64,000 nucleotides of DNA from assembly GCA_958510825.1 (NCBI GenBank), contig OY294049.1, positions 36,236,774-36,300,773 on the forward strand. Direction: 5' to 3'. The translations under genes were made by a program, and so were the position numbers. The stretch is from Brachypterus glaber. Lineage: Eukaryota > Arthropoda > Insecta > Coleoptera > Kateretidae. Under the pieces are notes generated by a model, which was given only the letters and a program-made list of their open reading frames with translations, was not told where the DNA came from and made no database searches. Below, one piece after another: positions 5,310-53,812 of this stretch (the first letter of the stretch is position 1; every line of letters starts with the position of its first letter).

Positions 5310-5518
5310 CCGTGCGATTTTAAAGTGCCGAACACTTTTTAATGCAAAACTAGCATTAGCGATGAGTAAAATTCAAGAAAGCTGTGTGCGATTTACTAGC
5401 CACCGAGCTGTTGTACATAGCAATCACATTGGCTTGTCGCGCACAACTCTAACAGAGGCATGGCTTCAAACGAAGAGTATTTTCTGTTCAAACTGTTCGG
5501 CACTTTATAATCGCACTG
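5310..5518. mobile_element. 209-bp MITE, copy 1 (TA target duplication)
   Basis: Ends CCGTGCGATTTTAAAGTGCC and the complement of TTATAATCGCACTG form a TIR of over 20 bp. Both sides are flanked by TA. A second copy of exactly the same length is at 14017..14225, about 90 percent similar by eye. A 90-codon open frame inside it is an artefact of the MITE, not a gene. Confidence 0.85.
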
Positions 5519-7623: not shown

Positions 7624-8200
7624 CAGAGCGGTTCAAGAGTCACCCCTCCCTCTTAACTTTTGAAATAGTTGAGATATCGACTTCAAATTTGGAACTTTTA
7701 AATAAGACAACTTAAACTATCTTTAAGCATATATTTAATACTTTCAGCTCTTAAAATGTGGACAGGGGGGCATGGGGGCACATTTTTTAAATGGAAAGGG
7801 GGGTCGTATAATACATCATTTTAAAGCTTATAAAATTCTCCATTTAACTCCATATTTTTAAATTAAAAAAAAAAAATTAAAAAAAAAAACTTAAAAAATC
7901 GAATGTTTTAGCACAAAAAATTGAAAAATCAAAACCTTAAAAAAAAAATTTAAAAAAATTAAAAATGTTAGTTTAAATAGAGAATTTTATAAGCTTTAAA
8001 ATGATGTATCACACGACCCCCCTTGTCATTTAAAAAAATGTCCTCCCATACCCCCCTGTCCAAATTTTTAGAGCTGAAAATATCAAATATATGCTAAAAG
8101 ATAGTTTAAGTTGTCTTATTTAAGAGTTCTAAACTTGAAGTCGATATCTCAACTCGTTCAAAAGTTAAAAGGGGGGGGGGGTGACTTTTGGACCGCACTG
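7624..8200. mobile_element. Palindromic CAG-ended MITE with TA target duplication
   Basis: Starts CAGAGCGGTTCAAGAGTCAC and ends GTGACTTTTGGACCGCACTG, flanked by TA on both sides (7622-7623, 8201-8202). The two halves are inverted copies of each other, with runs such as GGTCGTATAATACATCATTT / AAATGATGTATCACACGACC. Relatives, whole or partial, lie at about 28650-28760, 30090-30905, 38755-39130, 43805-43985, 47361-48670 and 60240-60370, making it one of the commonest families here. Confidence 0.75.
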
Positions 8201-8447: not shown

Positions 8448-8755
8448 CCCTACAAGCATTTGTACGTCGGCCGATCAACGAACTAATAACTCTTCTCTCT
8501 AGAATAGGCATTTCATTTGTAAAAACTGAAAAAAACGTAGCCAACATATACATTTGTCTGTCTTACTCGCACAGCTTTGTTCTAACAGAGACAACAATAA
8601 CAGTTACTGGTAATTGTTAATGTTCAGGCCTGAATATACCTACTATTTGCTTACAAACAAACCGAGATGTTGGCGATACTTTATATTAACGGTATGCGTA
8701 TTCTAGAGAGAAGATTTGTTAGTTCGTTGCGGCCGACGTACCATAGTTTGTGGGG
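8448..8755. mobile_element. CCC-ended element, family F, with an inserted second MITE (TA flanks)
   Basis: Ends CCCTACAAGCATTTGTACG and the complement of ACGTACCATAGTTTGTGGGG, both running into CGTCGGCCG, with TA at 8446-8447 and 8756-8757. The interior (ATCAACGAACTAATAACTCTTC ... GAAGATTTGTTAGTTCGTT) matches the free-standing element at 31767..32017, so this is a short family-F element carrying another insertion. Confidence 0.75.

Positions 8756-21122: not shown

Positions 21123-21151
<29 letters not shown>
21123..21151. repeat. (AT)n microsatellite at a transposon target site
   Basis: A run of alternating A/T directly before the ACAGGGTT terminus. A matching AT run follows the distal terminus at 24789-24810, consistent with insertion into a TA repeat. 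Confidence 0.8.
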
Positions 21152-21152
<1 letters not shown>

Positions 21153-22684: not shown

Positions 22685-22884
22685 NNNNNNNNNNNNNNNN
22701 NNNNNNNNNNNNNNNNNNNNNNNNNNNNNNNNNNNNNNNNNNNNNNNNNNNNNNNNNNNNNNNNNNNNNNNNNNNNNNNNNNNNNNNNNNNNNNNNNNNN
22801 NNNNNNNNNNNNNNNNNNNNNNNNNNNNNNNNNNNNNNNNNNNNNNNNNNNNNNNNNNNNNNNNNNNNNNNNNNNNNNNNNNNN
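22685..22884. other. Assembly gap (200 N)
   Basis: A run of 200 N, a conventional placeholder length. It interrupts two near-identical transposon copies. Frames reported across it are artefacts. Confidence 0.99.
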
Positions 22885-24788: not shown

Positions 24789-24810
24789 ATATATATATAT
24801 ATATATATAT

Positions 24811-31300: not shown

Positions 31301-33621
31301 TTTAATATTAACTACACTGCTTAACATTCAAAAATTTTCCGACACCATTTTATTTCATCTGCAGATGGACATGCCTATATGTATTTAATGCGCTGATTTC
31401 GGAACCTTTTTCCGTTATTTTGAGATATAAGCAGTGGCTTTTTTGCTTATAGTTGTAGTAAAAAAAATAATAAAGGTTCAGTTATTTTTTTTGCGTAGCA
31501 TTGGTTCTCTATTAAACGGGCTCTAAGCCAAAAAAAGCGGATTTTAAATATCTTTATTCGTTTGGATGTTGTTTTTTACAGTGTTCCAAATTTAAAAAAT
31601 GAGATTTTTACGTTTAAGTTTTAAGAATTCCTATTCAAGCTTTGTTCTAATTCAGAAACTTCCGCTTGGGGCCCCTGTAACTCGGAGCGCCTGTGTGATT
31701 AATACCTGCTACCGCGGTAGCTACGCCATAAAAAAATACTCTTACGCCATGGAACCCATGCATGGGTCTTCATCAATGAACTAATAACTCTTCTTTCTAG
31801 AATACGCATACCGTTAAAATAAAGTATCGCCAACATCTCGATTTGTTTGTAAACAAATAGTAGGTATATTCAGGCCTGAACAATAACAATTACCAGTAAC
31901 TGGTATTGTTGTCTCTGTTAAAACAAAGATGTGCGAGTAAGACAGACAAATGTTTATGTTGCCGAAGTTTTTGTCAGTTTTAACGAATGAAGAGTTATTA
32001 GTTCGTTGATCTTCATCCACGAATTTCTTATTATTCATTATTGATCGTGATCATGTCATTTTAGTGATCTACTATCAAGAACATACACTACAAACATTGG
32101 TTCGTCGGCCGCCCGACGTCCAACCTTTCCCAAATTACGTCGGTTAAACGTTGGCTGAAAGAACCAATGTTTGTAGGATAGTGCGCGCCCAGATTTATTT
32201 ACTTTACCTTAATTGACGTCAAATTTTCCAAACACTCTGCCCAGTTACTTTTAAAAAAAGACTCAGTGTTGTCTTTAATGTTTAAACATAATTTGCATAG
32301 TGAATGGTTGACTGTTTGATCAAATAACAATTCTTGCTTCATTTTATCTGCCTCAGTATTTGGATCAGGATAATCGTTTTGGTTTCTAGGACATAATTTC
32401 AAAAACGTTTGTTGCCATTTGTGTGCAAACTGTAACTCCTCCCAGCACTTACCGCATGCCGATTTTGATAAATCATCATTTTCTTCTATCTAAAATTATT
32501 TTAGCTTTCTTTACCCTTTGCTACAGATACTTCATAATAATAATAATAAATAATAATTATTACAGGCAGGGCTGGAAAGAGCCAGCCAGACCCGGGGAAC
32601 TTTATTTCCGGGACCCCTCGCCTCTGAAAAAAAAAGCTTTACCCCTGTCGAAAACATAAAATTTTTGCCGCCGTGTCCCCTTGGGAACGTTCAAGGTAAC
32701 GCAAATTGTACCAAAATTCATACACTTCATATCCCGGTTCCCGCGTAGCCAAAATATAAAATCTCTACAGCCTTTAATAACTCAGAAGATCCCTATTGTT
32801 TTTGAAAGTAATTTCCCCAAAAAGGAAGTGATATTTTTTATAACGAACATGTCAAAATGAGGGTATTTACGCTTCATACAAGCTCTCTAAAAAAGTTATC
32901 TTCTATAGTTAAGGAGATGATCTGTAGGCAATACTTCTTGTGTCACCTAGTATATTTTTTGGCTAAATAAATATTTGTGTATGAAATACCTTGTAAAAAG
33001 GTTTCTTTATATATAAATAAATATGTACATAAATAAATAAATGCTGTATGTAAATACCAAACCAGTTGTAATTATTTTTAATTTGGTAACCAAGTTCTCA
33101 AGCCATTTGGCTGTCACTGGGTATAGCCACTTTGGCAGGCCTTAATATAGCCAATTGGCTACATAACTAGTTATTTAGGCCATATATGGCTTAAAAAATA
33201 CTAGCTGGTAGCCAAGGCACCTCAAAGGCCCTGCAGGGCAGGTACATAGATACAGGAGGGACCTTAGCCCCCAAAATAAAAACTGCCCCCTAAAATGCTT
33301 GATTTATTGTAAAATGCAACATTCTTATGTTAGCCCCCCCCCCCAAATATCGAATTAGCCACCAAAATGCTTACACGTTAGCCAATCTAGTTTAGCCCCC
33401 CACAATATTTGGTTCTAGTTGCGCCTAGATTGCTACTATCTATTGAGACCATTAGTTGCACCTATGTGCAGTCTATGTTTATCTAAAATAACAAATAATT
33501 TTTGATCACTTACTTTTATAGAGGTTAGGGTAAATAGTAATTCTGTGCCATTTAAATGAAATAAGTTTTCACATGTCGAGTCTTCTTTCAAACACAATCT
33601 ACATGACTCAGAAGAATTCAT
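25330..33621 (-). CDS. Tandem-ZAD C2H2 zinc-finger protein, 6 exons, 517 aa
   Basis: Exons (minus): 33514..33621, 32208..32489, 28842..29313, 27635..27845, 26690..26906, 25330..25593. All junctions are GT-AG with matching phases 0,0,1,2,0. The ZAD zinc-binding half-sites are Cys7/10 with Cys48/51 (ZAD1) and Cys101/104 with Cys140/143 (ZAD2). Each ZAD is split by a phase-0 intron 26 residues after its second Cys, within LTSIK, so exon 2 carries the back half of ZAD1 and the front half of ZAD2. Eleven C2H2 fingers follow: three in exon 3 (194-213, 220-241, 250-271), then 299-319, 324-343, 350-371 (split by an intron), 378-399, 407-428, 436-456, 464-485, 495-516. The protein ends one residue after the last His. 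ZAD domains dimerise; this should be a nuclear DNA-binding protein. Its target is unknown. Introns hold several MITEs. Confidence 0.88.
25869..26128. mobile_element. CCC-ended element, family C, copy 1 (AA flanks)
   Basis: Begins CCCTAGTAGAAATTTGG and ends TTTTTCCACCAGGC (last G mutated to C), flanked by AA at 25867-25868 and 26129-26130. The interior is packed with CTAACGTTAG-like palindromic motifs. Lies in intron 5 of the zinc-finger gene. The other copy is in cyclin H intron 4. Confidence 0.75.
27960..28530 (+). repeat. Dispersed 0.57-kb repeat, copy 1
   Basis: Contains TATATACCAAGGTAGATAAG ... GTCTTCTCTACCGTAG flanking AGCTGCGTAGCAGCGAGG, then AAGTAGCCTTGATCAATGAC and AAAGTGACAGAAATCAATT, ending near GTTCTAAAGCTAGTAG. 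Other copies: 37745-38410 (inverted) and 59655-60235. Here it lies in intron 3 of the zinc-finger gene. No coding capacity and no clear TIR. Confidence 0.75.
29600..29815 (-). pseudogene. Tc1-type transposase C-terminal remnant
   Basis: The frame at 29611..29802 contains NCIEHVWNMLGRAV, matching the conserved NPIEHVWD...LGR segment that holds the third catalytic acidic residue of Tc1 transposases. Further on, other frames encode WDVLDQDQLNRLI and MPRRVEAVI, the usual C-terminal end, so at least one frameshift separates the pieces. It is a dead fragment in intron 2 of the zinc-finger gene. Confidence 0.7.
30090..30905. mobile_element. Copy of the palindromic GGTCGTGTGATA MITE family
   Basis: Left half has TAACTTTTGAACGGCTTAAA and GGGGGTCGTGTGATATAT; the right half has TATCACACGACCCCC and TTAAGCCGTTCAAAAGTTAA, so the copy is an inverted repeat. 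Related to 7624..8200. Located in intron 2 of the zinc-finger gene. Confidence 0.65.
31767..32017. mobile_element. 251-bp inverted-repeat MITE
   Basis: TCTTCATCAATGAACTAATA at the left pairs with TATTAGTTCGTTGATCTTCAT at the right. The interior (CAGGCCTGAACAATAACAAT, GTAACTGGTATTGTTG) matches, in reverse, the core inserted in 8448..8755. Lies in intron 2 of the zinc-finger gene. Confidence 0.7.
32086..32178. mobile_element. CCC-type element, family F, 93 bp (TA flanks)
   Basis: Ends CACTACAAACATTGGTTC and the complement of GAACCAATGTTTGTAGGA; terminal CCC/GGG are each mutated at one base. TA at 32084-32085 and 32179-32180. The interior is CGTCGGCCGCCCGACG-like. It lies 29 bp beyond the donor site of zinc-finger exon 2. 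Confidence 0.65.
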
Positions 33622-37396: not shown

Positions 37397-40300
37397 TTAA
37401 GTTAATTTAATCTTTTTATTATTATTAATTATTTTCCTACATTTTTTACAACCCATTAAAAATAATAAAATTATAAGAAAACTAAAACCGAACCCGAACA
37501 AAAAGACATCCAACAGATAATATCGATAAACTGGTACATCCGCCAATGGGCTTTTTAAATGTGAAGCCCCTTTATATCTTAATACGTAATTTATCCACCA
37601 TATTGTATTTTCCAAAGGTTTTATTTTCGGATTCTTCAAAATTTCTGAGACTTGGTCTATGTTTGCCTTGTAACTAAAAATAAAGAAAAATTTGAAATTT
37701 AAAATAAAACACTAAATTAAATATATTAATATATTTATTTAATATATAAAAAAAAATCACTACTAGCTTTAGAACATACCCTTATTTATCATGTTTTCAG
37801 ACTGTGAAATCAATTTTCTTCACCTATAGCAATAATAATTTTTTCTCTCCTAGTAGGAGTAAATTTTATAAACAATTGATTTCTATCACTTTAGATGTTC
37901 GAGTTCTTTGTGCAATTTTTACTAATTAAACCCAAGAAATTTCTTTAAATAGCTTTAAATAACTTTTTATTTGTTAAATATGATTAATTACAATTATTAC
38001 CAATTAATACAATCAATAATTAGCTAAATATTATGACAAAATTAAAAAAACTAAGTTTTCCAACTTCTGTTCAAAGTATTTATTTGAGAAAATGACATTG
38101 ATCAAGGCCCACATCAAGGCTACTTGTTTTTTTATTAAAATTTCAAGAAATATAATTTCTGTTAATAATTTATTTTATAAAAAATTTCTTCTCTACCTTG
38201 GTATATAATTACTATTATTATTTGAATAAAAATAGTTAAATAGTGCTAGTAGTGTAAAAACTAATATAAACTACGGTAGAGAAGACTACTTAAATCTCTT
38301 AAACACTCTTAAATCACTCTTAAATCCCTCGCTGCTACGCAGCTCGGGATTTATTACGCTCGGCTATAAAAAATGTCTTATATACCTTGGTATATAATTA
38401 CTATTTTACAACTCGACAGGGATTAAAAAAAGTGTTATACATCGTTGAATTCTGGAAAGCAATATCTTTCTGCGTGTACCTACCTATTGTTTTGTATTAT
38501 TGTATTTATTGACTGTTTGAGTATATTTTTATTCAAATAATCAAAATTAAGGTCCATTCCCATTCTCAATTGTGATATACGTTTAACATTGGAAAACTGG
38601 TCACCAAAAAATGGAATACCTAACATCGGAACGCCTGCATGTATTGCCTCTTCAACTGATTGAATTCCACCTTGCGTTATGAATAACTTTACATTTGGAT
38701 GCCCTGAAAATATTGGACTACATAAATAGAATGACTCAAATTATGTTTTGTACATTTGATATATTTTGGTAGCACAATGGAGAGGCAGAGGGGTAAGGGG
38801 AAATTTGTTTTATATAAAAAGGGAGGTCGTGTGATACATTATTTTTAAAGGTTGTAAAATTCTTTATTTGACCAAATATTATTTATTTTTGGAAATTCAA
38901 ACGCTCATTTTTTTTTAGTTAAAAAGTATATGGTCAAATAGAGAATTTAATAATTTTTAAAATGATGTAGGTATCACACAATCCCCTTTCTATTAAAAAA
39001 AATCCGTTAATACCCCCCCCCAGGGGGAGGCAGCTGCCTCCATTGTGCCCCCAAAAATATCAAAAATAAGAAAAAAAAATATTTGGGCGATGTCATTTAC
39101 GTAGACCAAATTTAAAGTTGATATAAAAATTAAAGGGATGGGCTAAGTCCAAAATTGTGACAAGCACACACATTTGTCTATGCACGCACGGTATATAATT
39201 GTCATAGTATGTATACATACTAAGTATATCTTGTTGTGGTGTCCAATTTATTAACTTAACATTATGGGGTATGGTGTCAGATATATCTTCAAATTTCCAT
39301 ATTACTTGATACGGTAGTTCGTTAAAAGCCTCCAAAAATATTCGACGTTTAGACTTATCTAACAAATAACTTTTTACAGTGGATCCAAAACTGAAATATA
39401 TTGCTCCATCAGTGGCAGTGTCCAGAAAAAGTTGTAAATCCTAAAAAAAAGTGCGTGTACATGATATCTCCCCTTATTAATGTGGATTAGAGATATAAAC
39501 ACGGCAACAGCGAGTGGAACGGACGCATATATTTGGTGGGAATAATTCTGTGGTGCTGAACAACTGAAAAGCTCCAGATCTGGAGCTTAAGAGCCTGCAG
39601 GCTCACTGAATGCTCATGAGCAGTAACTGATTAAGGCTCTATTAATATCTAGACCTTTATAACTGATCACTGCACGCTCAAGTCCGGTTTGTGCACCATT
39701 TACACCCGCCCAGACCCGTTCCCAGAAAGCACAACGATGACTTAAAGAGATCTTAAAGATGTCGTAGTTCGTCATTCAAGACGTCTTAAGAACGTCGGTT
39801 TTTGCCGTATATGCATCTTAAAGACGTCTTAACGACGTCGTATGTTACAAAAGGTAACGTCTTTAAGACATCTTTTTTAAGACGCCTTACTGACGCCTTG
39901 CACAGGCGACTTTATAACATAATACCCCCTCCCATTTACGTTGCTAGGTACGGTCGTATTGATACAAAAAGCGTAATAAGAATTAGAATGAGAGTTAATT
40001 TGTTTGTCAAAAAAAAGATCTTAAAAACAATGAATTTTTTTAATTTTTTTGGTATTTTTTTTAATAGTTGATTGTGGTTAATTTATTTTTAGCGATGAGT
40101 ATCGAAGTCAAGACGTCTTGTACCGATACTTAAAAGACATCTCATAGACATCATAATCAGATATATTTTAAACAACCCTAAAAAGAAGTCCATAAGATAT
40201 CCTTTTTATGTCTTTAGGCATCCAGGCATAATTAAGATTTAAAAACGACGTCTTTAAGATATCATGTGCTGTCTGGGTTATTTTCAATAGGGTAGTTGAA

Positions 40301-43300
40301 TTTTCAAAAAAAAAAAAAAAAAATCGTTTGGACAAAAAAATAAGCTAGGTACTTTTTTTCAAATGTCCGTCCGTCTGTCCGTCCGTCCGTTGGTCTTTCT
40401 GTCACGATTTTTGTAAACACTATAACTCAAGAATTAATAATCTGTTCGACTTGAAATTTTCAGGAAAAATAAAGTTTTACGAGGGAAAGATCCCTATAGT
40501 TTTTGAAAGTTAAAATGTTATGGGGGGTTTGGACTTTTTGAAAAAAGCTGAAAGAAAATTCGGATTAACGTATTTCTTTCATGAAAAAATAATTTTTAGG
40601 ATCAATTCTACTAAAAGTAAATTAAAAAAATAAATATATAAAATTTAAAAAAAATCTATTTTTTTTTAAATTTGTTTTTTTTAATTTTTCGTTTTTTGCA
40701 AAAAGAAAATTTTATAAAAAAATGGAAAATTAAAAAAAAAACTTTTTTGGATTTTTTTTTAAAATTATTTTTTGTACTTCAAAAAAGATCTTTAAAAAAT
40801 GTATTTTTTTTATTTTTTTTTTGAAAATTATTTATGTATGTTTGGGAAATGCAATATACCATTTACTGTGAATAATATATAATGGAATGCGTAGCATTAC
40901 ATATCTTCACGGCTTGTTCTTAATCCTATGGGGAGATCTCATTCACACGTGCTGTATATTTAAAAAATATAAATATTTTTCATTTTTCCTTAGTTATTTC
41001 CCCCTAAAAATAAATTATAGGAAAAACTATTATTTAGTTGGAAACAATATTTTTATTTTAGTAATTTACCCGGACAACATTCATAAACTCATATAGGCCT
41101 CATGAGAGCATCATGTTATGATTTCCACGTTTTGTACTCATACGAACATCATGATGAGCACATCTCATGATTTTGTGATCATGTTGTGAGTTTGTTATGA
41201 GGTGTATACATTTAACGTTAAATCATTAAATGATGTCATAATGATTTCCACGTGAAATTGCCCGGGACTCGATTGAGAACGATTGCCGAATAGTACAGGC
41301 TCCTGTAATGTTTCAATTTCAGTGCACTTGACAGCGTTATGCGATAGGTGGCGCCACATGTTATTTTCTGCCACTAACTAAACTTTTTAAACGAATAAAG
41401 GAATACTAGTATTAAAATGCAGGCTGCATTATGCAGCTGTCTTTATAAGGATATACTACTGATAATAACTAGTAATTAACTTACTGGTCAGCTAATTCGA
41501 TACACATTATCGGATTGGTATGGTGAGCCGTAGATATCTGGAGGCTTTAGTGTAGAGGAATTAGTACCCCCAGTCACCTTGGAGAACATTCCCACTGGGA
41601 AGTTCCCAGTGGGAAAATCTCCGTGTCCTCAGTTGTTAAAAATGGATTTATGTGGGGGTGAATGTCTAGGGGGGTTGATTTTTTTGGTATCTCTTCGCGT
41701 TTTCAAGATATGAACAAAAAGGTGTCTTTCTTTTTTTTAATTTTAAAATTCGCCGTCAATTTAAATTTCGCGGTTAATTTAAAGTTTGCGCATGCGCATT
41801 CCGTAGACCGCTGCTAGATCTTCATGACATGATCTCGTAATGACTTTACAATGAGGAGTCATCTGTAAGCGTTCATGAACTCAGAGAAAATCATTACATG
41901 ATGTCATAATGAATTCCACGTGAAATAGCAAATGTTGTCCGGGTACTATCAGACCCCCTGAGATTTTCAGTTAAGAAATAATGGTCGGGAGAAAAAAGAT
42001 AATCGCCTACCTTTGGTAATTCCTTTGCTTCTTGAATATTTAAGCCGTTAATTTCAACTATTGTGGGAATTTGCAATCTTGCTTTATCAAATCCTGGTAT
42101 AAATGTTGAAAACATCAGACTAATATTATTTCTTATTTCCATTAGACTTATCGAATTGTCGTTCAAATACTTTTTTGCAATTTTTTCCTGATCGGACATC
42201 AACAAGGATTCATCATAAAAATCCTCGAATTTATTAAAGAAAACTGCCAAAAGCCTTTCAAAAATATTCAGATTTTTACCGAAAGGTAAGTTTTTACTTG
42301 GATAAGCTACTGGGTGTATTAGATTACCCATGCTTCTTTGAATACCATTCGGTATTTCCATTGATGATATACCTACAATTGTATACCTACAATACCTATA
42401 TTTAAAAGTGCGATAGATCGTTTAGAACAGCCTCAAGATAATATAAAAATACATCTGCATACCAAATCTCAAGTCGCTAGCTCAAAGCGTTTTAAAGTTA
42501 TCGTGGATACAGACAGACATACAGACAGACATACAGATAGACATACAAACAGACAGACATACAGACAGACATACAGACAGACATACAGACATACAGACAG
42601 ACATACAGACAGACATACAGACAGACATACAGACAGACATACAGACAGACATACATACAGACAGACCGAGGGGCGTTTCACCTTTACAATACATGTACGT
42701 TTTTATCGACAGTACTTTACATTACATTGACATTACCTTACATTACTTACAATACTGTACATTACCGTACATTACTTACATTACTCTACAGTACCTGACA
42801 TTACTCTACAGTACCTGACATTAATTGACATTACGACAGTACCTACATTATTTACATTATTTTTATTAATGCGCATGCTCTCCTACAGTATTTACATTAT
42901 TTCGTCTGCTCAGATCGCTCAAAGACCACGTGACACCTATAAAATTTCGGCAGTGTTGTTTACTCCTGGTGGTTTTAAGTAAATTGTTCAGTTTAACCAC
43001 GAATTTAACATTTAATTTTTGTTCTTATAAAGTTTTTTTTTAATCATTTAAATAATAACTAACAACTGTTATGCCTGTATTATTTTTAATAATTTTTGTG
43101 TACCTGATGTATAATGAAAAGTACGGAATTTAATAGGTTTTTATCAAGTTTTTCTTTATGTAGCAGGGCCGTAAATTGTGAGGGGTGAGGGGAAGCTTAG
43201 CCTCCCTGGTCTTGGTTTAAGCCCCCCTGGAGACGTATTCTTCAAAACCGGGGAGTAGAACGAACCTCAGACTAAAAAAAAAAGGTCCCACCCTTTCTCA

Positions 43301-46300
43301 AAATAAAAAAAAAATACACCTTCTGGTTAAGTTATTTATATTTTTTTAAGGTTTGAGAATCCTTACTTTTATATTTTTATATATCTATGAAGTTTACAAC
43401 AACAACAGATTAAAAATTTATAATTTTATTATTTTTAACCCATGAAATATGTTTTATATTTTGAATCCACGAAATATGCAAGTTATTTGAAAATCCCAAC
43501 TTTTGTATTTTTAATACATCAAATTTACCACTTTTTTCCCAAAATTAAAAATGTATTATTTTATTATATTTATCCCATGAAAAAAAATGCAACTTTTATA
43601 TTTTTAATCCATGAAATAGGCAATTTTTTTTATTCTAAGGTTTAAAAATCCCAACTATTATATTTTTAAGCCATAAAATTTAAAACTTTTTTTCCCAAAA
43701 TTAAAAGTTTATTTATTTATTTTTTTAACCCATGAAATATGCAACTTTTATGTTTTTAATCCATGAAATATGCAACTTTTTTGATTTCAATATAGGTGAG
43801 GGGAAGGCTATTTTATATGACACAATGGTGACAGGGGGGATATTTTTTTTCAAATAGAAAGGAGATTTGTGTGATATGTCATTTTAAAGCTTATAAAATT
43901 CTTTATTTAACCAAATATTTTTTTATTTTTTGGGAGCAATTTTTGTGGTTTTAAAATAGGTTTAAAAATGGGAAATTTTGTTAAAATTCTAATTTTAAAT
44001 GATATTAATAAAATGTTATAAAAAAAAAACAAAACATCGCATTTTTTAGTAAATAAATTAAAAAAAATAAAGCCTACAAAAACCTGGACGTTTTATATCA
44101 AAAAAATATGATTTCCGTCAAAAAAAATTCTGTCTCTCAGTCGGTCTGTCGGTCTGTGTGTCCGGGAAGTTTGTGACCACGATAACTCAAGAACGCTCTG
44201 GGCCAAAGACTTTAAATTTGGACCATAGATAGGTTGATTACACTAGTTTACAAGGGTTTTATGCGAACTTTATTTTAATGTTTTCTTACATATTTGTTGA
44301 TGCTGAATCCAAATCCGTTAAGAAAAAAAAATCGTTGGTTCAGATTCCGAGATAACCTAAAGATTTTATAAGGGGAAAGTTAGAGAAATAATATATTTTC
44401 GTTTATCTCCTCCCTTGTATTGCTTTTTTTACGCTTCTTGACGTTTTATATTTTGATCACAGTTTGCTAGCAAGCTAAGCATGCTTAACCAGAGTTCTAG
44501 GCTGGGATTGTTTTTGGAAAAATCAGATGGGGTAATGTATTGTATGTATGTAATGGGGTATTTTTTTCAAAAAAAAAAAATATAATATATATTTTATTAT
44601 ATAAAAATATAATATACAGCCTGTTTGAAATCAAAGATCGAGTCTGACGTGTTTTTTTATAAAACACAGCGTATCGCATCCCACTACAATCACGTCAGCC
44701 TTGATCTAATCTTTCTGTCTTTGTTTTCTCTGTCTTGTATAATCTCAAACAGGCTGTATATTATATTATATATCTTTTTAGTTTTTTGGTTTAAATAAAC
44801 CTAGGCCTAACGGGAAAAGTATTATTTTGTTGACAGCAGTATTAATATTTTTTTAATTAGCTGATAAAAGTTGGTAAATAGGTGTTTTGGGACTCTTTGC
44901 AGGCAGATTTTTTTTATATTAAATTTGGTTTTAGCCAGTCGTAGTGTACCAAATTTTATCAGGTTAATTAAAAAAAATGTAAATATGGGGTGTCCTATGG
45001 GTTATATGGATCAAGACAGAATTAAAAAAAGAATAAATTCATTTTGAGCGAGACCGAAAACCCCCAGGGTTATTTAAAAAATATAAAAACGGGTGGCTGC
45101 ACCCCCTAACGATTAGATACTTTTAAATATAAAATTTGTTTCCAGGGACTCTAAAAACCCACAGATACCAATTTTTACTAATATTAAACGAAAATTTATG
45201 ATTTCTATAATTTTCTCCTATAAAAACTTTTTTTTTCTTGGCGAATTTGGATTCCTGATCAAAAGTTATGTTAGAAAACATGTAAAGTTGGGCATTAAAA
45301 AAGTTGAAATTTGTAAACTGGTGTTATCCAAAGTTTTAGACTGAAATTGTTTTAGGTAAAAATAGGGTTGGGGTACGGGGGTAAAATAGGGTAATTTTTT
45401 TTTCGGGCCTATAGGGGAAAGTAATATTTTGTTGGCAGCAGTATTTTTTACGTGTTACAAATTTCAAGTTAATAATTTTATTTTTTTTTATTTTTCGTTT
45501 TTCAAAAGAAGAATTAAAAAAAAAGTATTTTTTTTTTGTTTTAAATTTTTTTTTATTTGGGAAAATTATACAATATACTGTGAATGATATATAATGGAAT
45601 GCGTAGCATTACAAATCTTCACGGCTTGTTTATTAATATATTTTTATACATATATTAACCTAAATTTATGTTAATCTTAACCTAACATCCTACATTACCT
45701 CGTACCAGTGGCGGACTGGCCGTAAGGCAGGGTCGTCAAAAGCCGACCGGGCCTCAGTACTAAACAGGCCCGCACACGGCCATTTGGTCTATTTTGGCTA
45801 TACCGGGCCCTCGATTTTCCAATTTTTTATGGGTTTTGAGCCGTTTACAGGCATTTTTTAATATTTTTCCGACCGTGCTGTAAGAAGCCAGTCCGCGTCT
45901 GCCTCGTACATTACCCTACAGTACTTTACATTAAGTGGACATTACTTACATTACCGACATTATTTCGACAGTATTATACAGTACTACATTTTTCTACATT
46001 ATTTCGACATTACCATACAGTACTACATTTTTCTTACATTAATCGTACAATATTGTAAATAATGTACATTATTTACAATACATGTACAAAAATAGGTCAG
46101 TGAAACGCCCCTCGAGACAGACATACAGACAGACATACAGACAGACATACAGACAGACATACAGACCGACAGACAGACACACAGAAATATTTTTTTTGTT
46201 GCTTATTTTGTTTTTTATCGATGATTTAAGCAAAAAAAAAATATATTTTTTTTCTATCACAATACTTTCTTTTATGAGAAAGAGTGGAAGTTTATAGATA

Positions 46301-46765
46301 TCTACCTATAATGGGGCACTGAAATTTTTTCGCCAATCCAAACCATGCTGCTAGGTGAACTTCCACAATCATCAAGTCAAAATGGTCGTCTCCTTTTATC
46401 AATTTTTGTACTTCCGGATGCAAGAACTGCTCTTCTGTTAAATTTCTGCTCGCCCAAAGAACATGCCTCATTAGTTTTAGTATATTTTTTTCAGTGTTTA
46501 AAATATATTGAAATCCATTGTCCTCGAACATCAATTTGTACGAAAAACTCAAATCAATTTCAGTCAAATTTTGCAAATCTGGATCCTTTAAAGGATTCGG
46601 CGTTAAAACGGTTATTTGGTGTCCACGCAAACTTAATTCCTTCCATATGGGTCTAAACACACTTTGGTGACTGTATAAAGGCATGGGAAATATTCCCAAA
46701 ATTTTTGCAGAAAAGCCACATTTTAAAATAAGAAAAATTAAGATTGATATTTTTAATAAGTACAT
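37397..46765 (-). CDS. UDP-glycosyltransferase (UGT), membrane-bound, 5 exons, 512 aa
   Basis: Exons (minus): 46306..46765, 42011..42372, 39221..39440, 38484..38703, 37397..37673; all GT-AG, phases 1,0,1,2. Residues 1-20 form a hydrophobic signal peptide. FPMPLYSHQSVFRP carries the acceptor-activating His33. The usual catalytic Asp position in the FDLMIVE segment is Glu135. The UGT donor-binding signature runs from about W340 (WTPQQDIL) through LFITQGGIQSVEEA and GVPMLGIPFFGDQ to 383. A C-terminal transmembrane helix (about 475-495) is followed by a lysine-rich cytosolic tail ending KIKLT, a KxKxx-type ER retrieval signal. Insect UGTs transfer glucose from UDP-glucose to small lipophilic compounds in the ER lumen. 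Length is normal and no defect is seen. Introns, especially intron 1 (3.9 kb), are full of repeats. It is transcribed away from cyclin H. Confidence 0.93.
37745..38410 (-). repeat. Dispersed 0.57-kb repeat, copy 2 (inverted, in UGT intron 4)
   Basis: Reverse complement of the 27960-28530 repeat: TACTAGCTTTAGAACATACC, ATTTCTATCACTTTAGATGT, GACATTGATCAAGGC, and CTACCTTGGTATATAATTAC. The hairpin end carries an extra partial duplication of CTTAAATC.CTCTTAAA units. Confidence 0.7.
38755..39130. repeat. Partial copy of the palindromic GGTCGTGTGATA MITE family
   Basis: GGGAGGTCGTGTGATACATT and the mirrored ATGTAGGTATCACACAATCC bound an AT-rich centre; the outer ends are incomplete. Lies in UGT intron 3, and its end abuts exon 3. 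Confidence 0.6.
39721..40277. mobile_element. CCC-ended element, family A, copy 3 (TT flanks)
   Basis: Ends CCCAGAAAGCACAACGATG and the complement of GATATCATGTGCTGTCTGGG, flanked by TT (39719-39720, 40278-40279). Interior dense in AAGACGTCTT / TTAAGACGTC / AAGACATCTT. Lies in UGT intron 2. An 89-codon frame in it is an artefact. Confidence 0.85.
40300..41060. repeat. AT-rich repeat unit with TGTCCGTCCGTCTGTCC and GTGAATAATATATAATGG
   Basis: Inverted relative of the 16190-17390 sequence: CCGTCCGTCTGTCCGTCCG, TTTTCAGGAAAAATAAAGTT, then TTACTGTGAATAATATATAA and GAATGCGTAGCATTACATAT. Remainder is A/T low complexity. In UGT intron 2. Confidence 0.5.
41069..41943. mobile_element. CCC-ended element, family E, 875 bp (TA flanks)
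   Basis: Ends CCCGGACAACATTCATAAAC and the complement of AATAGCAAATGTTGTCCGGG, flanked by TA at 41067-41068 and 41944-41945. Subterminal zones are crowded with TCATGA / CATCATGATG / ATGATGTCATAATGA palindromes. The middle (about 41270-41820) differs in texture and may be another insertion. The right end lies 67 bp past the donor of UGT exon 2. Confidence 0.8.
42509..42666. repeat. ACAGACAGACAT tandem repeat
   Basis: About 13 units of 12 bp with minor variants. Several reading frames stay open across it (poly CLSV-type), which is a microsatellite artefact. Directly followed by GAGGGGCGTTTCAC, which recurs inverted beside the second array at 46116..46184. Confidence 0.95.
44560..44770. repeat. 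Inverted repeat around CAGCCTGTTTGA / TCAAACAGGCTG
   Basis: ATAATATACAGCCTGTTTGA near 44610 is mirrored by AATCTCAAACAGGCTGTATAT near 44740. The interior is unrelated to a gene. Probably a small MITE of about 150 bp with TATACAGCCTGTTTGA ends. Confidence 0.6.
46116..46184. repeat. ACAGACAGACAT tandem repeat, second array
   Basis: Five to six 12-bp units, following CGAAACGCCCCTC-type sequence in the orientation opposite to the array at 42509..42666. Confidence 0.95.
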
Positions 46766-47340
46766 TTTAGTATAATACTAGGTTTTCTTGATGTAAAAAT
46801 TCATACATGTATAGAATTATGATTGTTTGTTATCTCGATATCACTGTTTAACTAATTTAAGTAATTCTTAAATACGTAGATATTATTGTGATTTTTAATA
46901 AATATTTTTTTTACAAAATATGTATACCTAATAGACTAGCTGCAAAAAAAACCGTAAAAAAAAAATAATTTAAAAATAATTAAAAACTTTTTTTTTAGAA
47001 AAGTTAAAATTAAAAAAAAAATAAGAAAAAAATCAAAACAATTTCAGATCATAGCGTTCTCGAGAAAAACAGACCGAAATTTTTTTCGCAATAAAACGCA
47101 AGAAACGTGAAAAAGTTATAATTTTTTTTACTAAGGTAGGTGGGATACGACCCCCCAACCACGTTTGACTTGGGGAAATCGTCTGTCCAGAGATTTCCCA
47201 GTTGAGCTGGGATACCCTATAAAGTGGGGTAGTCGCGATGAGCTGTTTTTTCTTTTTGATTAAGCCGAGGATTAAGCATCAGATTTAGTAGTTGGGAAAA
47301 TCAGTAAATAGGGTAGTACAAAATAGTACTTTCCCCTATA
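46766..47340. other. 5' flank of the UGT gene
   Basis: AT-rich upstream sequence with no certain promoter element. About 47140-47240 contains CCAGAGATTTCCCAGTTGAG and TGGGATACCC phrases of unknown origin. No gene seen. Confidence 0.35.
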
Positions 47341-47360
47341 ATTAATAATAAATATATAGA

Positions 47361-48670
47361 GAGCGTGTTAAAAGTCCGCCCCCGATCCGCCCCCCTTTTA
47401 ATTTTTAAACGGCTTAAGATATCAACTTGAAATTTGGAAGACGTAAATAACATAACCCATATGATTTTTTGGTAGGTATTTGTTATGCTCAGGGGGTATA
47501 ATGGAGACAGGGGGGTAAGGGGAACATTTTTTTAATGGAATGGGGGGTCGTGTGATACATCATTTTAAAGCTCATAAAATTCTTTATTCGACCATTTTAT
47601 ATAAATTTTTATTTTTTTTAATATTTTCATTTTTAATTTTTTTTTTGTTAAAAAATGCGATTTTTTAAGATTTTGTAAAATTATGTTTATATGATTCAAA
47701 ATTAGTTTAAAAATATAATTGACGTATTTGTATCATGAAATAAACCATTTTTTAAAAATTGTTTGACTTTTTTAAAGATATTTTGACGAAAATATGCATT
47801 TTTAACCCTATTTTAAACCCCCAAAAATTTTCCCGAAAAAAAATATAAATAGATAATTTTATAAGCCCTAAAATGATATATCACACTCCTTGCCTCCATT
47901 GTGACCCCCAAACATATAAAATATATACCAAAAAGTTACTTCCCAGACAGCACATGATATCTTAAAGACGTCTTTTTTAGATCTTAATTATGTCTGGACG
48001 CCTAAAGACATAAAAAGGATATCTTATGGACTTCTTTTTAAGGATGTTTAAAAGATATCTGATTATGATGTCTATAAGATGTCTTTTAAGTATCGGTACA
48101 AGACGTCTTAACTTCGATACTCATCGCTAAAAATAAATTAACCACAATCAAGTATTAAAAAAATTACCATTTTCTTAAAGATCTTTTTTTGAAAAACGAA
48201 AAAATTTTTAAAAAATTCAAAAAAGAAATTTTCAAAAAAAAAACTGAAAAAAAAAAATAAAAAAAAATAAAGAAAAAATACATTTTTTTAAGATCTTTTT
48301 TTGACAAACAACTTACCTCTCATTCTAATTCTTATTACGCTTTTTATATCAATACGACCGTACCTAGCAACGAAAATGGGAGGGGGTATTATGTTGTAAA
48401 GTCGCCTGCGCAAGGCGCCAGTAAGGCGTCTTTAAAAAGATGTCTTAAAGACGTTACCTTTTGTAACATACGACGTCGTTAAGACGTCTTTAAGATGCAT
48501 ATACGGCGAAAACCGACGTTTTTAAGACGTCTTGAATGACGAGCTACGACATCTTTAAGATCTCTTTAAGTCATCTTTGTGCTGTCTGGGTTGGGTTATG
48601 TAATTTAGGTGTTCCAAATTTCAAGTTAAGCCGTTCAAAAGATAAAGGAGGGGCGCACTTTTGACACGGT
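47361..48670. mobile_element. Palindromic MITE (GGTCGTGTGATA family) interrupted by a family-A element
   Basis: The left end GCGTGTTAAAAGTCCGCCCC and right end GGGGCGCACTTTTGACACGG are inverted counterparts. The inner arms (GGGGTCGTGTGATACATC, TATCACACTCC) match the other family members. The sequence is split at 47942..48590 by a family-A CCC element, giving a clear order of insertion. Confidence 0.7.
47942..48590. mobile_element. CCC-ended element, family A, copy 1 (TT flanks)
   Basis: Ends CCCAGACAGCACATGATATC and the complement of AGTCATCTTTGTGCTGTCTGGG (final 13 bp shown by the other end), flanked by TT at 47940-47941 and 48591-48592. About 649 bp, with two AAGACGTCTT-rich arms around an A/T core. 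No ORF. It interrupts the older MITE 47361..48670. Confidence 0.88.
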
Positions 48671-48672
48671 CT

Positions 48673-49286
48673 CCCAGACAGCACAAAAATGACTTAAAGA
48701 GATCTAAAAGATGTCGTAGCTCGTCATTTAAGACGTCTTAGGAACGCCGGTTTTCGCCGTATATGCATCTTAAATACGTCTTAACAACGTCGTATGTTAC
48801 AAAAGGTAACGTATTTAAGACATCTTTTTTAAGACGCCTTGCACAGGTGACTTTACAACCTAATACTCCCTCCCATTTACGGTCGTATTGATATAAAAAG
48901 CGTAATAAGAATTAGAATGAGAGGTAATTTGTTTGTCAAAAAAAGATCTTAAAAAAATGTGTTTTTTTTTTATTTTCTTTTTTTAAATTTTCTTTTAATT
49001 TTTTCGTTTTTCGTAAAAAGAAAATGAAATTTTTTTTCAAAAAAAGATCTTAAAAAAAATAGTATTTTTTTTAATAGTTGATTGTGGTTAATTTATTTTT
49101 AGCGATGAGTATCGAAGTTAATACGTCTCATACCGATACTTAAAAGACATCTTAAAGACATCATAATCAGATACCTTTTAAACATCCTAAAAAGAAGTCC
49201 ATAAGGTATCCTTTTTATGTCTTTAGGCGTCCAGACATAATTAAGATCTAAAAAAGACGTCTTTAAGATATCATGTGCTGTCTGGG
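48673..49286. mobile_element. CCC-ended element, family A, copy 2 (CT flanks), inverted relative to copy 1
   Basis: Ends CCCAGACAGCACAAAAATGAC and the complement of GATATCATGTGCTGTCTGGG, flanked by CT at 48671-48672 and 49287-49288. It starts only 82 bp after copy 1 ends, in the opposite orientation. Together the two could form a very large hairpin between UGT and cyclin H. Confidence 0.88.
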
Positions 49287-49650
49287 CTTTATATGTTTCA
49301 AAATAAGATCCCAAAAAAATTAAAAATATATACCTAAAAAGCTTATAAGCCATTATTTAAAATCCCGCTATAAATAGAAAGATGTATACTGTTGGACTTT
49401 TGTTGGCCAAAAAATTACCGCATTATCGCATTCTGTCTCTATCCCCATTTTTACAGAAAATTGGTTTTTCGTTCTGAAAACACTAGATGGTGCTAATTGA
49501 ATGTTAACTTAGGAATCCTGTAATTTTACTTGTATATCAATTTGATAGATGACGCTAGCTGTACGTTTACCAAAACTTAACCTCACTTTTTTTTTGCTAG
49601 AACTGCTTTGAAATAGTTCTTTCGGTTTAATATATTTTTTCTTTAGTAAT

Positions 49651-52600
49651 ATGTTCCCAAATAGTACTCAGAGTAAATACTGGATATTCGATAGTGAAGA
49701 TGAGCTGAATAAATTAAGAGAAAAGGCGAATTTAAGGCATATTAATAAATATGGAAGGCACATAAATGTAAGCAGTTTTTTAGATTTATTTTTGTAAGCT
49801 AAAGCCTGTTTTTAGGATGCAGATAAATATAATTATTTCCTCACACCAGAAGAAGAAAAAACTATGGTTAAAAATTATGAATTGAGGTTGAGAGATTTTT
49901 GTAAGCGGTTTCAACCTCCAATGCTTCGTTGTGTTATAGGAACTGCTTTTCATTATTTTAAACGGTTTTATATTCATAATTCAGTTATGAATTATCACCC
50001 CAAAGAAATAATGTAAGTGGTATATTAATTTAATAGCTATTTTAATTATTTTTTCCGAGGACGAGACCTCAAGATCTATTCAGTATCCAGTACTGAGTAT
50101 CAATACACTTATTTATTTGATGTTTAAATATGTACATTCAAAAATTTTAGTGTTGTATATTCACTAAAAATACTATTTGCAGATATGCCAAATAATCATC
50201 TCATAACTTTTTGTTTTAAATATTTTAGGGTTACTTGTATATATTTAGCTTGTAAGGTTGAAGAATTTAACGTGTCTATTCAGCAATTTGTTGCCAATAT
50301 AAAAGGGGATAGAGATAAAGCTACAGATATTATTTTAAATAACGAATTACTTTTAATGGAACAATTACATTTTCATTTGTGCATACATAATCCATTTCGG
50401 CCAGTGGAAGGATTGCTTATTGACATAAAGGTACTTACTGTCTTACTTATTATTGATTATTATAATTAGTAATTATTAATTATAGCCAATAATTTATTGA
50501 ATGGTTTGGGTCAAATCTGAAAATAAAAAAAAAATTGAATTGACTTTTTTCTTGGAGAAAAGTTTAATAGGGTTAATATTTATAAATATAATATTATTTT
50601 AGACCAGAAGTTCTCTAAATGATCCTGAGAGATTAAGGCATGGTACTGAACATTTTCTTGAGAGGGCATTACTAACAGACTGTATTTTATTGTATTCACC
50701 TAGTCAATTGGCATTGGCTGCTGTTTTGCATGCAGCATCCAAAATACATGAGAATCTGGATTCCTATGTAACAGAAACACTGTTTGGTGAAGATGGTAGA
50801 GAAAAATTGGCCGAGTTAATAGATTCTGTAAGAGGTTAGTGTTAAATACTATTTTTTTTTGTAAATGAGTGGCGATTTTTTAAAATTTTTATTTAAAATT
50901 TTCCTTATCCCTGAAGTAACTTCAGTGGCTTTAGCAACAAGTTTTACTAATTGACATAGTACTTTCTGAGATATTTTATAAAAAATCTATCTTTTTGCGC
51001 CCAGGTGAGCCCTTTTGATATTTATAGGTGATATTAACAAATAAAAAGTGTGCTATTTTATTAGTAATAACCAGATAGAGAATGCTTTGATAATGTTTAT
51101 GGTATATAAGTTTTTAAGTTAACATGCAACTTGGAGAAACACCTTTTGTGTAGTACCTACCCTGGTGGAAAATAATGATTGAACAACTTGACCTAACGTT
51201 GGATGAATGTGGTTTGAATGTTAGATGCCTAACGTTAGGATATAACGTTAGAATATTGTTTATCTGACGTTAAGAGTTTTAATAAACGTTAGATAAACGT
51301 GGTTCTAACGTTAGGCACCTAACGTAAGGAATTCTAACGTCAAAAACCGGGAAATTTATACCCATATAGCACAATATTCCCCGGATATCCTCTCAATGTC
51401 GCATGTCCCGGGACATTAGTGGTATATCCCAAGAATGTCCCGAAAGGTATGTCCTGATGATATACTGCCCGTATATCCCAAGGATATACGGTATGTCCTT
51501 CGTACATCCCAGGGACGTCCCGATGGAATGTCCCGTAGATGTCCCTGGGATATCCTACGATGGCTTTCCTTCATTATTTTAAATTTACCGCGTTTTTCGT
51601 GACTTTAATGGCGGTTGTTATTGTCGGTCTGTCTGTTTTTTTTTCCACAGTTATTATTAAATATTTATATTGTGTTTTCCTCTGTTGGACAATTTCGTGA
51701 GTATTACCCCTCCCTGAGGGAAAAAGGAAATATATTTCGTAGATAACTAATTATGTACAAAGATCCCTGACAAAAGTGGCTATCAAATAGTATTGCTACA
51801 GGTGTACAATGTACACTGTACAATGTACAGTGTACACTATACATAATTAGTAGCTATCTTTAGGACAGGCGTACAGTATATCCTCAAGACATACCTTCGG
51901 GATATTCTTGGGATATACGGTTCGGAAGTCGCTCGGCTTTCCGTTTAGTAACGAAGTATATCCTGAGGATGTCCTACGGATATCTACTGACGAAATGGTA
52001 TATCCTGGGGATGTCGGAAATCCTGAAACGGATATTCTCTTAATATAGCACAAGTTTAATAATAAACGTTTATTATTAAACTTGTGCTATACGGGTACAT
52101 TAAAAATGCGTTAGAAAAAACTTTTATCTAACATTAATTTTCTACTTTGGTAATCGTAAAAATATCGCTTTATAGCAGTAAGATCCATGGTAAAAATGAC
52201 AGATACACCAGTGGACAAGAATCAACAAAAATTGCTAGATAGAAAATTGGAAAAATGTAGGAACCCAGAATTTAACCCCGATAGTGAAATGTAAGTATCC
52301 TCATTTTTGAAGCAACGAAGTATAAAAATCGCCGTTTGTCCCAAAAAAATCCAAAAGTTTCCAAAATGATATTCTCTATAAAAAACTTGTTTAAATTTTT
52401 TTTCTAACTTTAGTTTTTGAGAAAACCAGGAAATGGTCAAAATTGTCCGATACCTTGATTTTAAGGTACACGTTTGGAGTTTTTTGCAAATATCTTCTAC
52501 ATGGCCAACTAACTGAAAAAACAAGTTATTATAAAAAAGAAAGCTTATACCTTAAAATCAAGGTATTGGCACAAGTTTTGACCATTTTGTCATTTTCTCA

Positions 52601-53100
52601 AGAACTAACTAAGTTAGAAAGAAGTTTTAGCAAAATATTTTGTAGAAAATTTTATAAGTTTTCTTTTTTGTAATAATTTATTTAAAAAAAAATTGACTTT
52701 TTAGAAATAATTTGCAAAAAACTGCAAAATTGTACTTTCATCAGGAAGGTCTAGACTACACCTACACCAATTTTCAAGACTTTTGCATTTTTTTGAGACA
52801 AATAACGTTCGTTGCTTGGGCTATATCTGTAGTTATCCGCGATAAATTATTTATAAACCACCCTGTATGCTAGTGCCTAAAATATTGGATGCACATTTGG
52901 CATATTGGTCACACATGTTCCATTTTATACTGATTACCTATAGGTATATCTATAGATATATTTTTATTTATAGATACAAAAAAAGGCTGCAAGCTATGTT
53001 GGATGATGACGATGATTTATATCACACCATTACTACAAGAAACGATTCCATGGACAATTCCGCGCTGAATATGTCTGTAGCATCTCCAGAAAGGTCCTAA
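49651..53100 (+). CDS. CycH: Cyclin H, regulatory subunit of the CDK7 (CAK/TFIIH) kinase, 6 exons, 329 aa
   Basis: Exons: 49651..49767, 49816..50012, 50229..50430, 50603..50834, 52176..52290, 52974..53100; all GT-AG, phases 0,2,0,1,2. The N-terminus ([20 protein letters not shown]) matches the cyclin H N-terminal helix. The first cyclin box runs roughly 55-160 and includes [29 protein letters not shown], the hallmark [15 protein letters not shown] and [18 protein letters not shown]. The second box follows ([27 protein letters not shown]). The acidic C-terminal tail [11 protein letters not shown] is also typical. Human cyclin H is 323 aa, so the length is complete. With CDK7 and MAT1 it phosphorylates cell-cycle CDKs and the RNA polymerase II C-terminal domain. 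Intron 1 is only 48 bp; intron 4 (1.34 kb) is almost entirely a nested pair of transposons. Confidence 0.96.
51160..52150. mobile_element. CCC-ended element, family C, copy 2, interrupted (TA flanks)
   Basis: Starts CCCTGGTGGAAAATAATG and ends TTTTCTACTTTGG (terminal G's partly mutated), flanked by TA at 51158-51159 and 52151-52152. CTAACGTTAG-like units fill 51190-51345. A family-B element (51361..52095) splits it. Its right end is 26 bp from the acceptor of cyclin H exon 5. Confidence 0.75.
51361..52095. mobile_element. CCC-ended element, family B, 735 bp (TA flanks), nested in family C
   Basis: Ends CCCATATAGCACAATATTCC and the complement of AAACTTGTGCTATACGGG, flanked by TA at 51359-51360 and 52096-52097. 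The interior is dense in self-complementary runs such as GGATATCC, GGGACGTCCC, GTATATCCCAAGGATATAC, GGGACATTC. The terminus CCCATATAGCACA is close to family A (CCCAGACAGCACA). Confidence 0.85.
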
Positions 53101-53106
53101 TATTAT

Positions 53107-53112
53107 AATAAA
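53107..53112 (+). terminator. Poly(A) signal of cyclin H
   Basis: AATAAA only 6 nt beyond the stop codon, implying a very short 3' UTR unless the AATAAA near 53150 is used instead. Confidence 0.55.
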
Positions 53113-53329
53113 ACTATACATATATTATTTAAATTGAAATTTTTTTATTAATAAACGCAATAGATACTTTACGTTTTTTTACGTTTATTTTCCTTCAAGT
53201 ATTTCTTGAGTAGAAACTTCTTTATTTCGTATCTAGGTAAAATCAATTGGATTCATTTGTAGTGTTTCAATCCCTAGTGAATTTTTTTGGCTGAATAAAA
53301 TATTTTTACAATAACTTCGTTTATATGTA

Positions 53330-53450
53330 GCGTTAACTACCGGTATTTATAATTCCGACAGCAGTCTATCTCTTTCTTTCAAGTTGTTTTAGAGAAAGAG
53401 AGAATGATAGAGAAGTTATAAATACCGATAGCTAGCGCTATGTGTCCAAA
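53330..53450. repeat. Imperfect inverted repeat (TACCGGTATTTATAA / TTATAAATACCGATAG)
   Basis: GCGTTAACTACCGGTATTTATAA pairs with TTATAAATACCGATAGCTAGCGC across a CTCTTTCTTTC/GAAAGAGAG stem, giving a small MITE-like hairpin. Confidence 0.65.
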
Positions 53451-53679
53451 CGTAGTCAATGTTAGGTTTTTATTAAAAATATTTTTTTTGATTTGAAATG
53501 TTGCGCTTACTCACGTTATGGTTTGAAGGCTAACATAAATAAAACATAAATACAACCTAATGTTAGAATCCCGTCCATTATACAGGTTGATGAGGTTGAT
53601 TACGAACTATAGTTCGGCTTGCAAGTAATATATTTTTAAACGCTCGTTCTATATAAAAATGGTTCTACCGCTTATGCTA

Positions 53680-53812
53680 CCCTATAAAAAAATTCAAATT
53701 GAAACGCATTGAAACACATAGAGACGATTCCAAATACGTATTGAAAAGTAATGCGTATTTGGAATCGTCCGAATATGTTTTAATACGTTTCAATACGACA
53801 TTTTTTATAGGG
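53680..53812. mobile_element. CCC-ended element, family G, 133 bp (TA flanks)
   Basis: Ends CCCTATAAAAAAATTC and the complement of ACATTTTTTATAGGG, flanked by TA at 53678-53679 and 53813-53814. The interior is the palindrome GACGATTCCAAATACGTATT / AATGCGTATTTGGAATCGTC. Confidence 0.8.

What the first reader, a model, noticed from the sequence alone, without database searches (positions are those of the whole stretch)
39721..53812. A superfamily of CCC...GGG-ended elements with 2-bp target duplications
Eleven elements in seven sequence families share three properties read directly here. They have inverted termini beginning CCC. They have identical dinucleotides on both sides: TT, TT, CT for family A; TA for B; AA and TA for C; AA for D; TA for E, F (two) and G. 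They have no ORF. Family ends grade into each other: A CCCAGACAGCACA with B CCCATATAGCACA; D CCCAATAAACAATGG with F CCCTACAAACATTGG (F read with its terminal mutation corrected). The members are 47942..48590, 48673..49286, 39721..40277, 51361..52095, 25869..26128, 51160..52150, 14687..16072, 41069..41943, 8448..8755, 32086..32178 and 53680..53812. A variable 2-bp duplication does not fit Tc1/mariner (always TA), hAT (8 bp) or piggyBac (TTAA). ISL2EU elements are reported to make 2-bp duplications and are the first candidate, but that is a guess.
Basis: partly seen in the sequence, partly recalled or inferred. Interest (0 to 1): 0.88.

Follow-up and report, generated by a model that had tools for sequence, protein, structure and literature searches.

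The report
Non-autonomous animal CACTA (TRC) transposons
The elements are real mobile DNA pieces that carry no transposase gene of their own, duplicate two bases of the host wherever they land, and belong to a branch of the CACTA transposons already described in animals, so the finding is sound but largely explained.

Summary
In the window's own 648-Mb genome, copies of six of the seven families have identical, variable 2-bp flanks: A 37 of 38, B 13 of 15, C 9 of 10, D 17 of 18, E 10 of 10, F 6 of 10; 92 of 101. Family G could not be tested. Paralogous empty sites support a 2-bp duplication for A1 and, weakly, B; A2 is inconclusive.

The ISL2EU guess fails: that group is described with AT duplications in A|AT|T and mostly GG ends. 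CCC ends with 2-bp duplications are the published marks of animal TRC elements of the CACTA (CMC/EnSpm) superfamily. In this genome a 4,278-bp element with ends CCCAACCAGCA/CCCAACTAGCA and a TA duplication, shown by an empty site, encloses a TRC-type transposase frame and sits inside a family-C-like element; it is one of eight transposase places examined. The window elements are best read as non-autonomous TRC/CACTA elements, moved in trans. New members of a known kind; no autonomous copy of a window family was found, though that was not searched exhaustively.

The parts
47942..48590 (+). Family A copy 1 (A1), TSD TT
   Evidence: paralogous empty sites fit a 2-bp duplication best in 4 of 6 (one of them a tie with 4-6 bp), 1 bp in 2 of 6; 37 of 38 genome copies with 2-bp TSD
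48673..49286 (-). Family A copy 2 (A2), TSD CT, inverted relative to A1, 82 bp away
   Evidence: empty sites inconclusive (0 and 2 bp tie in one, 0 better by 1 in the other)
39721..40277 (-). Family A copy 3 (A3), TSD TT
51361..52095 (+). Family B, TSD TA, inserted into C1; right end altered relative to genome copies
   Evidence: 13 of 15 genome copies with 2-bp TSD; weak empty-site support in C2 (14 against 13)
51160..52150 (.). Family C copy 1 (interrupted by B), flanks TA; right end CCA instead of CCC
   Evidence: 9 of 10 genome copies of family C with 2-bp TSD, one of the nine with a doubtful left end
25869..26128 (.). Family C copy 2, flanks AA; right end GCC instead of CCC
   Evidence: left end 22/24 identical to a C-like element that holds a TRC element
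14687..16072 (+). Family D, TSD AA
   Evidence: 17 of 18 full-length genome copies with 2-bp TSD, 15 of 33 fetched being partial
41069..41943 (+). Family E, TSD TA here
   Evidence: 10 of 10 genome copies with 2-bp TSD, AT GT TA TG TT AA; ends 9/13 to the published Spongebob TRC TIR
8448..8755 (+). Family F copy 1, flanks TA, carrying a nested unrelated repeat
32086..32178 (+). Family F copy 2 (93 bp), flanks TA, terminal mutations at both ends
   Evidence: 6 of 10 genome copies with 2-bp TSD
53680..53812 (.). Family G, flanks TA; weakest member
   Evidence: only; genome search not answered

Best explanation
These are non-autonomous cut-and-paste transposons of the animal TRC branch of the CACTA (CMC/EnSpm) superfamily. 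A TRC transposase made elsewhere in the genome recognises the short CCC-N3/4-[AC]ARCA-like terminal inverted repeats, excises the element and joins it to a 2-bp staggered cut, so that any dinucleotide, with a preference for TA and AA, is duplicated. By analogy with plant En/Spm, family-specific arrays of short subterminal repeats (A AAGACGT, B GGATATA, C1 AACGTTA, D CGTCGGC) are binding sites for a second, element-encoded DNA-binding protein. Shown: termini, 2-bp variable duplications, empty sites for A1 and for a transposase-bearing relative, CCC ends around a TRC-type transposase frame, subterminal repeats in A, B, C and D. Inferred: that this transposase group moves families A-G, and that the subterminal arrays are protein-binding sites.
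For: Genome copies with exact 2-bp variable duplications, 92 of 101 in A-F. Published TRC marks: CCC core and 2-bp TSD, Tribolium TIR CCCTAGTAGCACCGAATATTTGTAAAA; Hydra Spongebob TIR CCCAGCCAACATTGAC with 2-bp TSD. Element E matches Spongebob at 9 of 13 positions after CCC, reached by 3 of 1,135 CCC sites, two of them E's own ends; taking the better of the two published TIRs, seven family means exceed other CCC sites (p 4.9e-5; the four ends that do not begin CCC, C1 right, C2 right and both of F2, were left out). Genome search: a 347-aa frame over the Transposase_21 cut-off and relatives. One relative lies in a 4,278-bp element, L106:2765-7042, TIR CCCAACCAGCAAAGTA/CCCAACTAGCATTTTA (12/16), TA/TA; the other arm of its host element aligns ungapped through the junction (91 columns) best when exactly 2 bp are dropped (score 75 against 72 or less). 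The host's left end is 22/24 identical to window C2. Subterminal 7-mers exceed shuffles in A1, A3, B, C1, C2 and D (reached by 0-1 of 200 shuffles), more weakly in A2, E, F1 and G (4-17 of 200), not in F2 (78 of 200).
Against: No window element encodes a transposase, and no transposase-bearing copy of A, B, D, E, F or G was found, though this was looked for only in the eight fetched transposase stretches. The L106 frame matches Transposase_21 directly only at E 0.016, below the cut-off; the link runs through its 31% identity to L069 (E 8.3e-20). L106 is the only one of eight transposase places where a CCC element could be confirmed. At the others the scans gave nothing or unconvincing pairs: L124 14/16 with TA, but the end CCCTATAGGG is self-complementary; L123 16/16 with AT, but CCCCCC; L125 12/16 with AG; L126 11/16; L105 and L122 10/16; L069 10/13; none of these was followed further. 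The host C-like element of L106 itself has unequal flanks, TA and CA. The Tribolium TIR alone does not single out the elements, and leave-one-out end profiles rank families unevenly (B and C poorly). In one search, 8 of 87 control windows also reach a count of 5 or more, several of them in tandem repeats. F is 6 of 10 only; G untested.
Confidence: 0.93

Rival explanations
1. ISL2EU (PHIS superfamily) non-autonomous elements.
For: ISL2EU also makes a 2-bp duplication (PMC4482050).
Against: ISL2EU duplications are AT within A|AT|T and the TIR usually begins GG. Here A duplicates TA 15, AA 8, AT 3 of 37 and seven other dinucleotides, and the ends are CCC. A TRC-type transposase lies between CCC ends in this genome. 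ISL2EU and YqaJ genes were not searched for.
Confidence: 0.02
2. Tc1/mariner/IS630-type elements with TA targets, at least for the families that are TA-flanked in the window (B, E, F, G).
For: In the window B, E, both F and G are flanked by TA.
Against: Genome copies of B, E and F also use other dinucleotides. Only G remains open.
Confidence: 0.03
3. An unrelated, still unnamed superfamily that shares CCC ends and 2-bp duplications with TRC by convergence.
For: No member of a window family with its own transposase was found; ends are short.
Against: The same genome has a TRC-type transposase between CCC-AGCA ends with a 2-bp duplication; E's ends match a published TRC TIR.
Confidence: 0.04

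Closest known systems
Animal TRC elements (SmTRC1 and Tribolium/Aedes relatives), CACTA superfamily, PMC1636069 (abstract and passages seen)
   Same: CCC at the ends, 2-bp duplication, Tribolium TIR CCCTAGTAGCACC close to families C (CCCTAGTAGAAA) and B (CCCATATAGCACA); TRC-type transposases in this genome
   Different: Window elements carry no transposase; only TIRs could be compared
Spongebob / EnSpm-4N1_HM (Hydra) and its insect copies, PMC4298943 (passages seen)
   Same: CCC ends, 2-bp TSD; CCCAGCCAACATTG against E CCCGGACAACATT
   Different: Only the TIR was compared; no full sequence was at hand
CMC-NA MITEs of polydnaviruses and wasps, PMC6004678 (passages seen)
   Same: Non-autonomous CMC elements with 2-bp TSD
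   Different: CAC ends rather than CCC
Plant CACTA elements (En/Spm, Tgmt), PMC2613891 (passages seen)
   Same: Short conserved TIRs plus variable subterminal repeats bound by a TNPA-like protein
   Different: CACTA ends; 3-bp duplication for Tgmt
ISL2EU, PMC4482050 (passages seen)
   Same: 2-bp duplication
   Different: AT in A|AT|T, usually GG ends, YqaJ partner gene

Membership tests
Animal TRC / CACTA (CMC) | TIR beginning CCC | tested here: met
Animal TRC / CACTA (CMC) | 2-bp target duplication | tested here: met
   92 of 101 copies in six families; empty sites for A1 and L106; A2 empty sites inconclusive; G not tested
Animal TRC / CACTA (CMC) | Transposase_21-type transposase between such ends | tested here: inconclusive
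   Found in a related 4,278-bp element, one of eight places examined; none inside a window family
Animal TRC / CACTA (CMC) | Subterminal repeats (from plant CACTA) | tested here: met
   A1, A3, B, C1, C2, D; weak in A2, E, F1, G; not in F2; 8 of 87 control windows also reach 5 or more
ISL2EU | AT duplication in an A|AT|T target | tested here: not met
   A: AT in 3 of 37 duplications
ISL2EU | TIR usually beginning GG | tested here: not met
   5' ends read CCC
ISL2EU | YqaJ-domain partner gene | not tested
   no search made
Tc1/mariner | TA target only (recalled) | tested here: not met
   G open
PIF/Harbinger | 3-bp TWA duplication | tested here: not met
   3-bp repeats 0 of 38 (A) and 0 of 18 (D)
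piggyBac | 4-bp TTAA duplication (recalled) | tested here: not met
   4-bp repeats 0 of 38 (A) and 0 of 18 (D)

The most novel reading that the evidence does not exclude
Several sequence-unrelated TRC families share one transposase through the common CCC-N-ARCA ends, while each family's own subterminal array, often palindromic (AGACGTCT in A, GGATATCC in B, TAACGTTA in C, CGGCCG in D and F), is read by a different co-evolving DNA-binding partner: a modular two-key system in an insect genome, with family A recently active (the 23 best other copies are 96-99% identical to A1).
Probability: 0.2. Interest if true: 0.4.

Novelty: new member of a known kind. Interest (0 to 1): 0.24.

Why it matters
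It places seven apparently unrelated repeat families of one genome (first-look candidates above a thousand for four of the six that were searched: A, B, D, E) in a known branch of animal CACTA transposons, and gives a clean data set on its target choice (2 bp, any sequence, TA/AA preferred). The near-identical A copies suggest recent movement, so an active TRC source may exist in this species.

Tried and rejected
Rejected: ISL2EU, Tc1/mariner, PIF/Harbinger, piggyBac (see membership). 26174-26646 as a further member (inverted repeat extends through the TA). Palindrome counts as a general mark: 8-mers above shuffles in A1, D and E (0-2 of 200), B (7) and, weakly, A3 (18) and C1 left (23); not in A2, C2, C1 right, F1, F2, G; and 87 control windows average 6.1 per 600 bp, so this is no clear mark. 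Viral contigs for a remembered marine AGCACAACGTTGG motif: 30 stretches, no partner end within 6 kb in any of the 30, judged chance; two further patterns gave 0; TRC protein in viral contigs: 8 pattern matches, none a relative. Literature search by TIR letters: one unrelated paper. Rfam 0 hits at gathering threshold; phages no match for A2.

Rows left out of counts: A, 38 of 42 rows (two partial copies, one fragment and window copy A2 not fetched); D, 15 of 33 fetched are partial; C, 2 of 12 fetched without a left end, and L167 counted though its left end is doubtful; B 15, E 10, F 10 and C 12 copies chosen by me from the listed rows, F those matching both ends. A and D counts include the window's own A1 and D. 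An E-like piece (75% over 262 columns) lies at L125:256-517, 3.7 kb from a transposase frame; not followed up.
Full report
The eleven elements were read at the stated coordinates and all show the claimed ends and flanks. A scan for CCC-ended inverted repeats that did not use the list recovers seven of them (A1, A2, A3, B, D, E, G) and shows an excess of equal flanking dinucleotides, 11 of 32 against 9.9% for other trinucleotides. The window carries zinc-finger frames (C2H2, and a zf-AD match below the cut-off), two UDP-glucosyltransferase frames and a cyclin frame; that the genome is an insect's is inference.

The window lies in an assembly of 648 Mb (G000:C12:36236774-36300773). First-look candidates: 1,445 for A, 3,969 for D, 1,051 for B, 1,416 for E, 469 for C2, 63 for F2; only the best 40 of each were scored. 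Of the copies whose flanks I read, identical dinucleotides lie on both sides in A 37 of 38 and D 17 of 18, B 13 of 15, E 10 of 10, F 6 of 10, C 9 of 10. Dinucleotides vary; in A, TA and AA are commonest; 3-bp repeats are 0 of 38 (A) and 0 of 18 (D). At the background chance of 0.087 each family is beyond chance, F least so (p 7e-5).

Empty sites. A1 and A2 sit in a dispersed repeat with other copies in the window. When the flanks of A1 are joined with a varying number of bases dropped, four of six paralogues fit best with two dropped (one of the four a tie with 4, 5 and 6), two fit best with one. A2 is inconclusive: in one paralogue 0 and 2 tie, in the other 0 is better by one. B, inside C1, fits C2 best with two bases dropped, by a small margin (14 against 13).

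Which superfamily. The PHIS paper gives ISL2EU an AT duplication within A|AT|T and usually GG ends, which does not fit. DeMarco and colleagues (PMC1636069) describe animal elements related to CACTA, TRC, with CCC ends and 2-bp duplications in Schistosoma (7 of 14 copies there), Tribolium and Aedes; a later paper assigns the Hydra element Spongebob to TRC on the same two marks (PMC4298943). Against the Spongebob TIR, E scores 9 of 13, reached by only three of 1,135 CCC sites in the window, two of them E's ends; taking the better of the two published TIRs, the seven families score above other CCC sites (p 4.9e-5). The Tribolium TIR by itself is not selective.

The genome holds TRC-type transposases. 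Pfam Transposase_21 finds one frame of 347 aa over the cut-off; that protein finds others (66 rows, many of them short pieces of the query's C-terminal end that may be a repeat). I fetched 8.9-kb stretches round seven of these and 19 kb round the first. In L106 the frame (3367-4395) lies in an element 2765-7042 with ends CCCAACCAGCAAAGTA and CCCAACTAGCATTTTA and TA on both sides. It interrupts an older element whose left end, CCCTAGTAGAAATTTAACATTAGA, is 22/24 identical to window C2 and whose arms hold the AACGTTA array of family C; that host element's own flanks are unequal (TA, CA). Its intact opposite arm serves as an empty site: 91 columns align without a gap through the junction when exactly two bases are dropped. 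So CCC-AGCA ends, a 2-bp duplication and a TRC-type transposase occur together in this genome. The frame's direct Pfam score is below the cut-off. At the other seven places no CCC element could be confirmed: L124 has a 14/16 pair with TA whose end is self-complementary, L123 a CCCCCC repeat, L125 a 12/16 pair with AG, the rest less. Decay of those copies is my guess.

Anatomy. Arrays of short repeats fill the subterminal zones of A, B, C and D and differ between families; in plant CACTA such arrays vary between families and are bound by TNPA-like proteins (PMC2613891). Eight of 87 control windows reach a similar count, several in tandem repeats, so this mark is supporting, not decisive. The three frames of 93 aa or more in or overlapping D and A3 match no Pfam family, in keeping with non-autonomous elements moved in trans.

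Verdict. What is new is membership: six families with verified 2-bp duplications, and probably G, of non-autonomous TRC/CACTA elements in one genome.

Noticed in passing
8474-8729 and about 31770-32020; L070:7787-8038: An unrelated ~256-bp repeat (ends ATCAACGAACTAATAACTC) is nested in F1, sits near F2, and recurs at 95% identity elsewhere in the genome.
   Followed up: partly
7680-8141, 30117-30916, 39035-39119, 47350-47512: Dispersed foldback-like repeat that hosts A1 and A2; several copies within the window.
   Followed up: partly
21130-24810: Large inverted repeat holding two near-identical 187-aa frames; the one scanned has a Tc3-type transposase HTH match below the cut-off; 200 N lie between them.
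   Followed up: partly
3458-3957: Near-perfect 249-nt inverted repeat with a 2-nt gap (99%).
   Followed up: no
26174-26646: 473-bp repeat with TIR AGGGGGARATACCCATGAA; looks like a TA-flanked CCC element but its inverted repeat extends through the TA.
   Followed up: yes
37397-39440: Two UDP-glucosyltransferase frames on the minus strand; frames at 41894-42421 and 46292-46777 look similar by eye but had no Pfam match.
   Followed up: no
42507-42666 and 46115-46185: AGAC/ATACAGACAGAC simple-repeat arrays.
   Followed up: no
L106:605-1042: DNA/RNA non-specific endonuclease (Endonuclease_NS) frame near the TRC element.
   Followed up: no
L125:177-517: E-like internal sequence (75%) 3.7 kb from a TRC-type transposase frame.
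   Followed up: no
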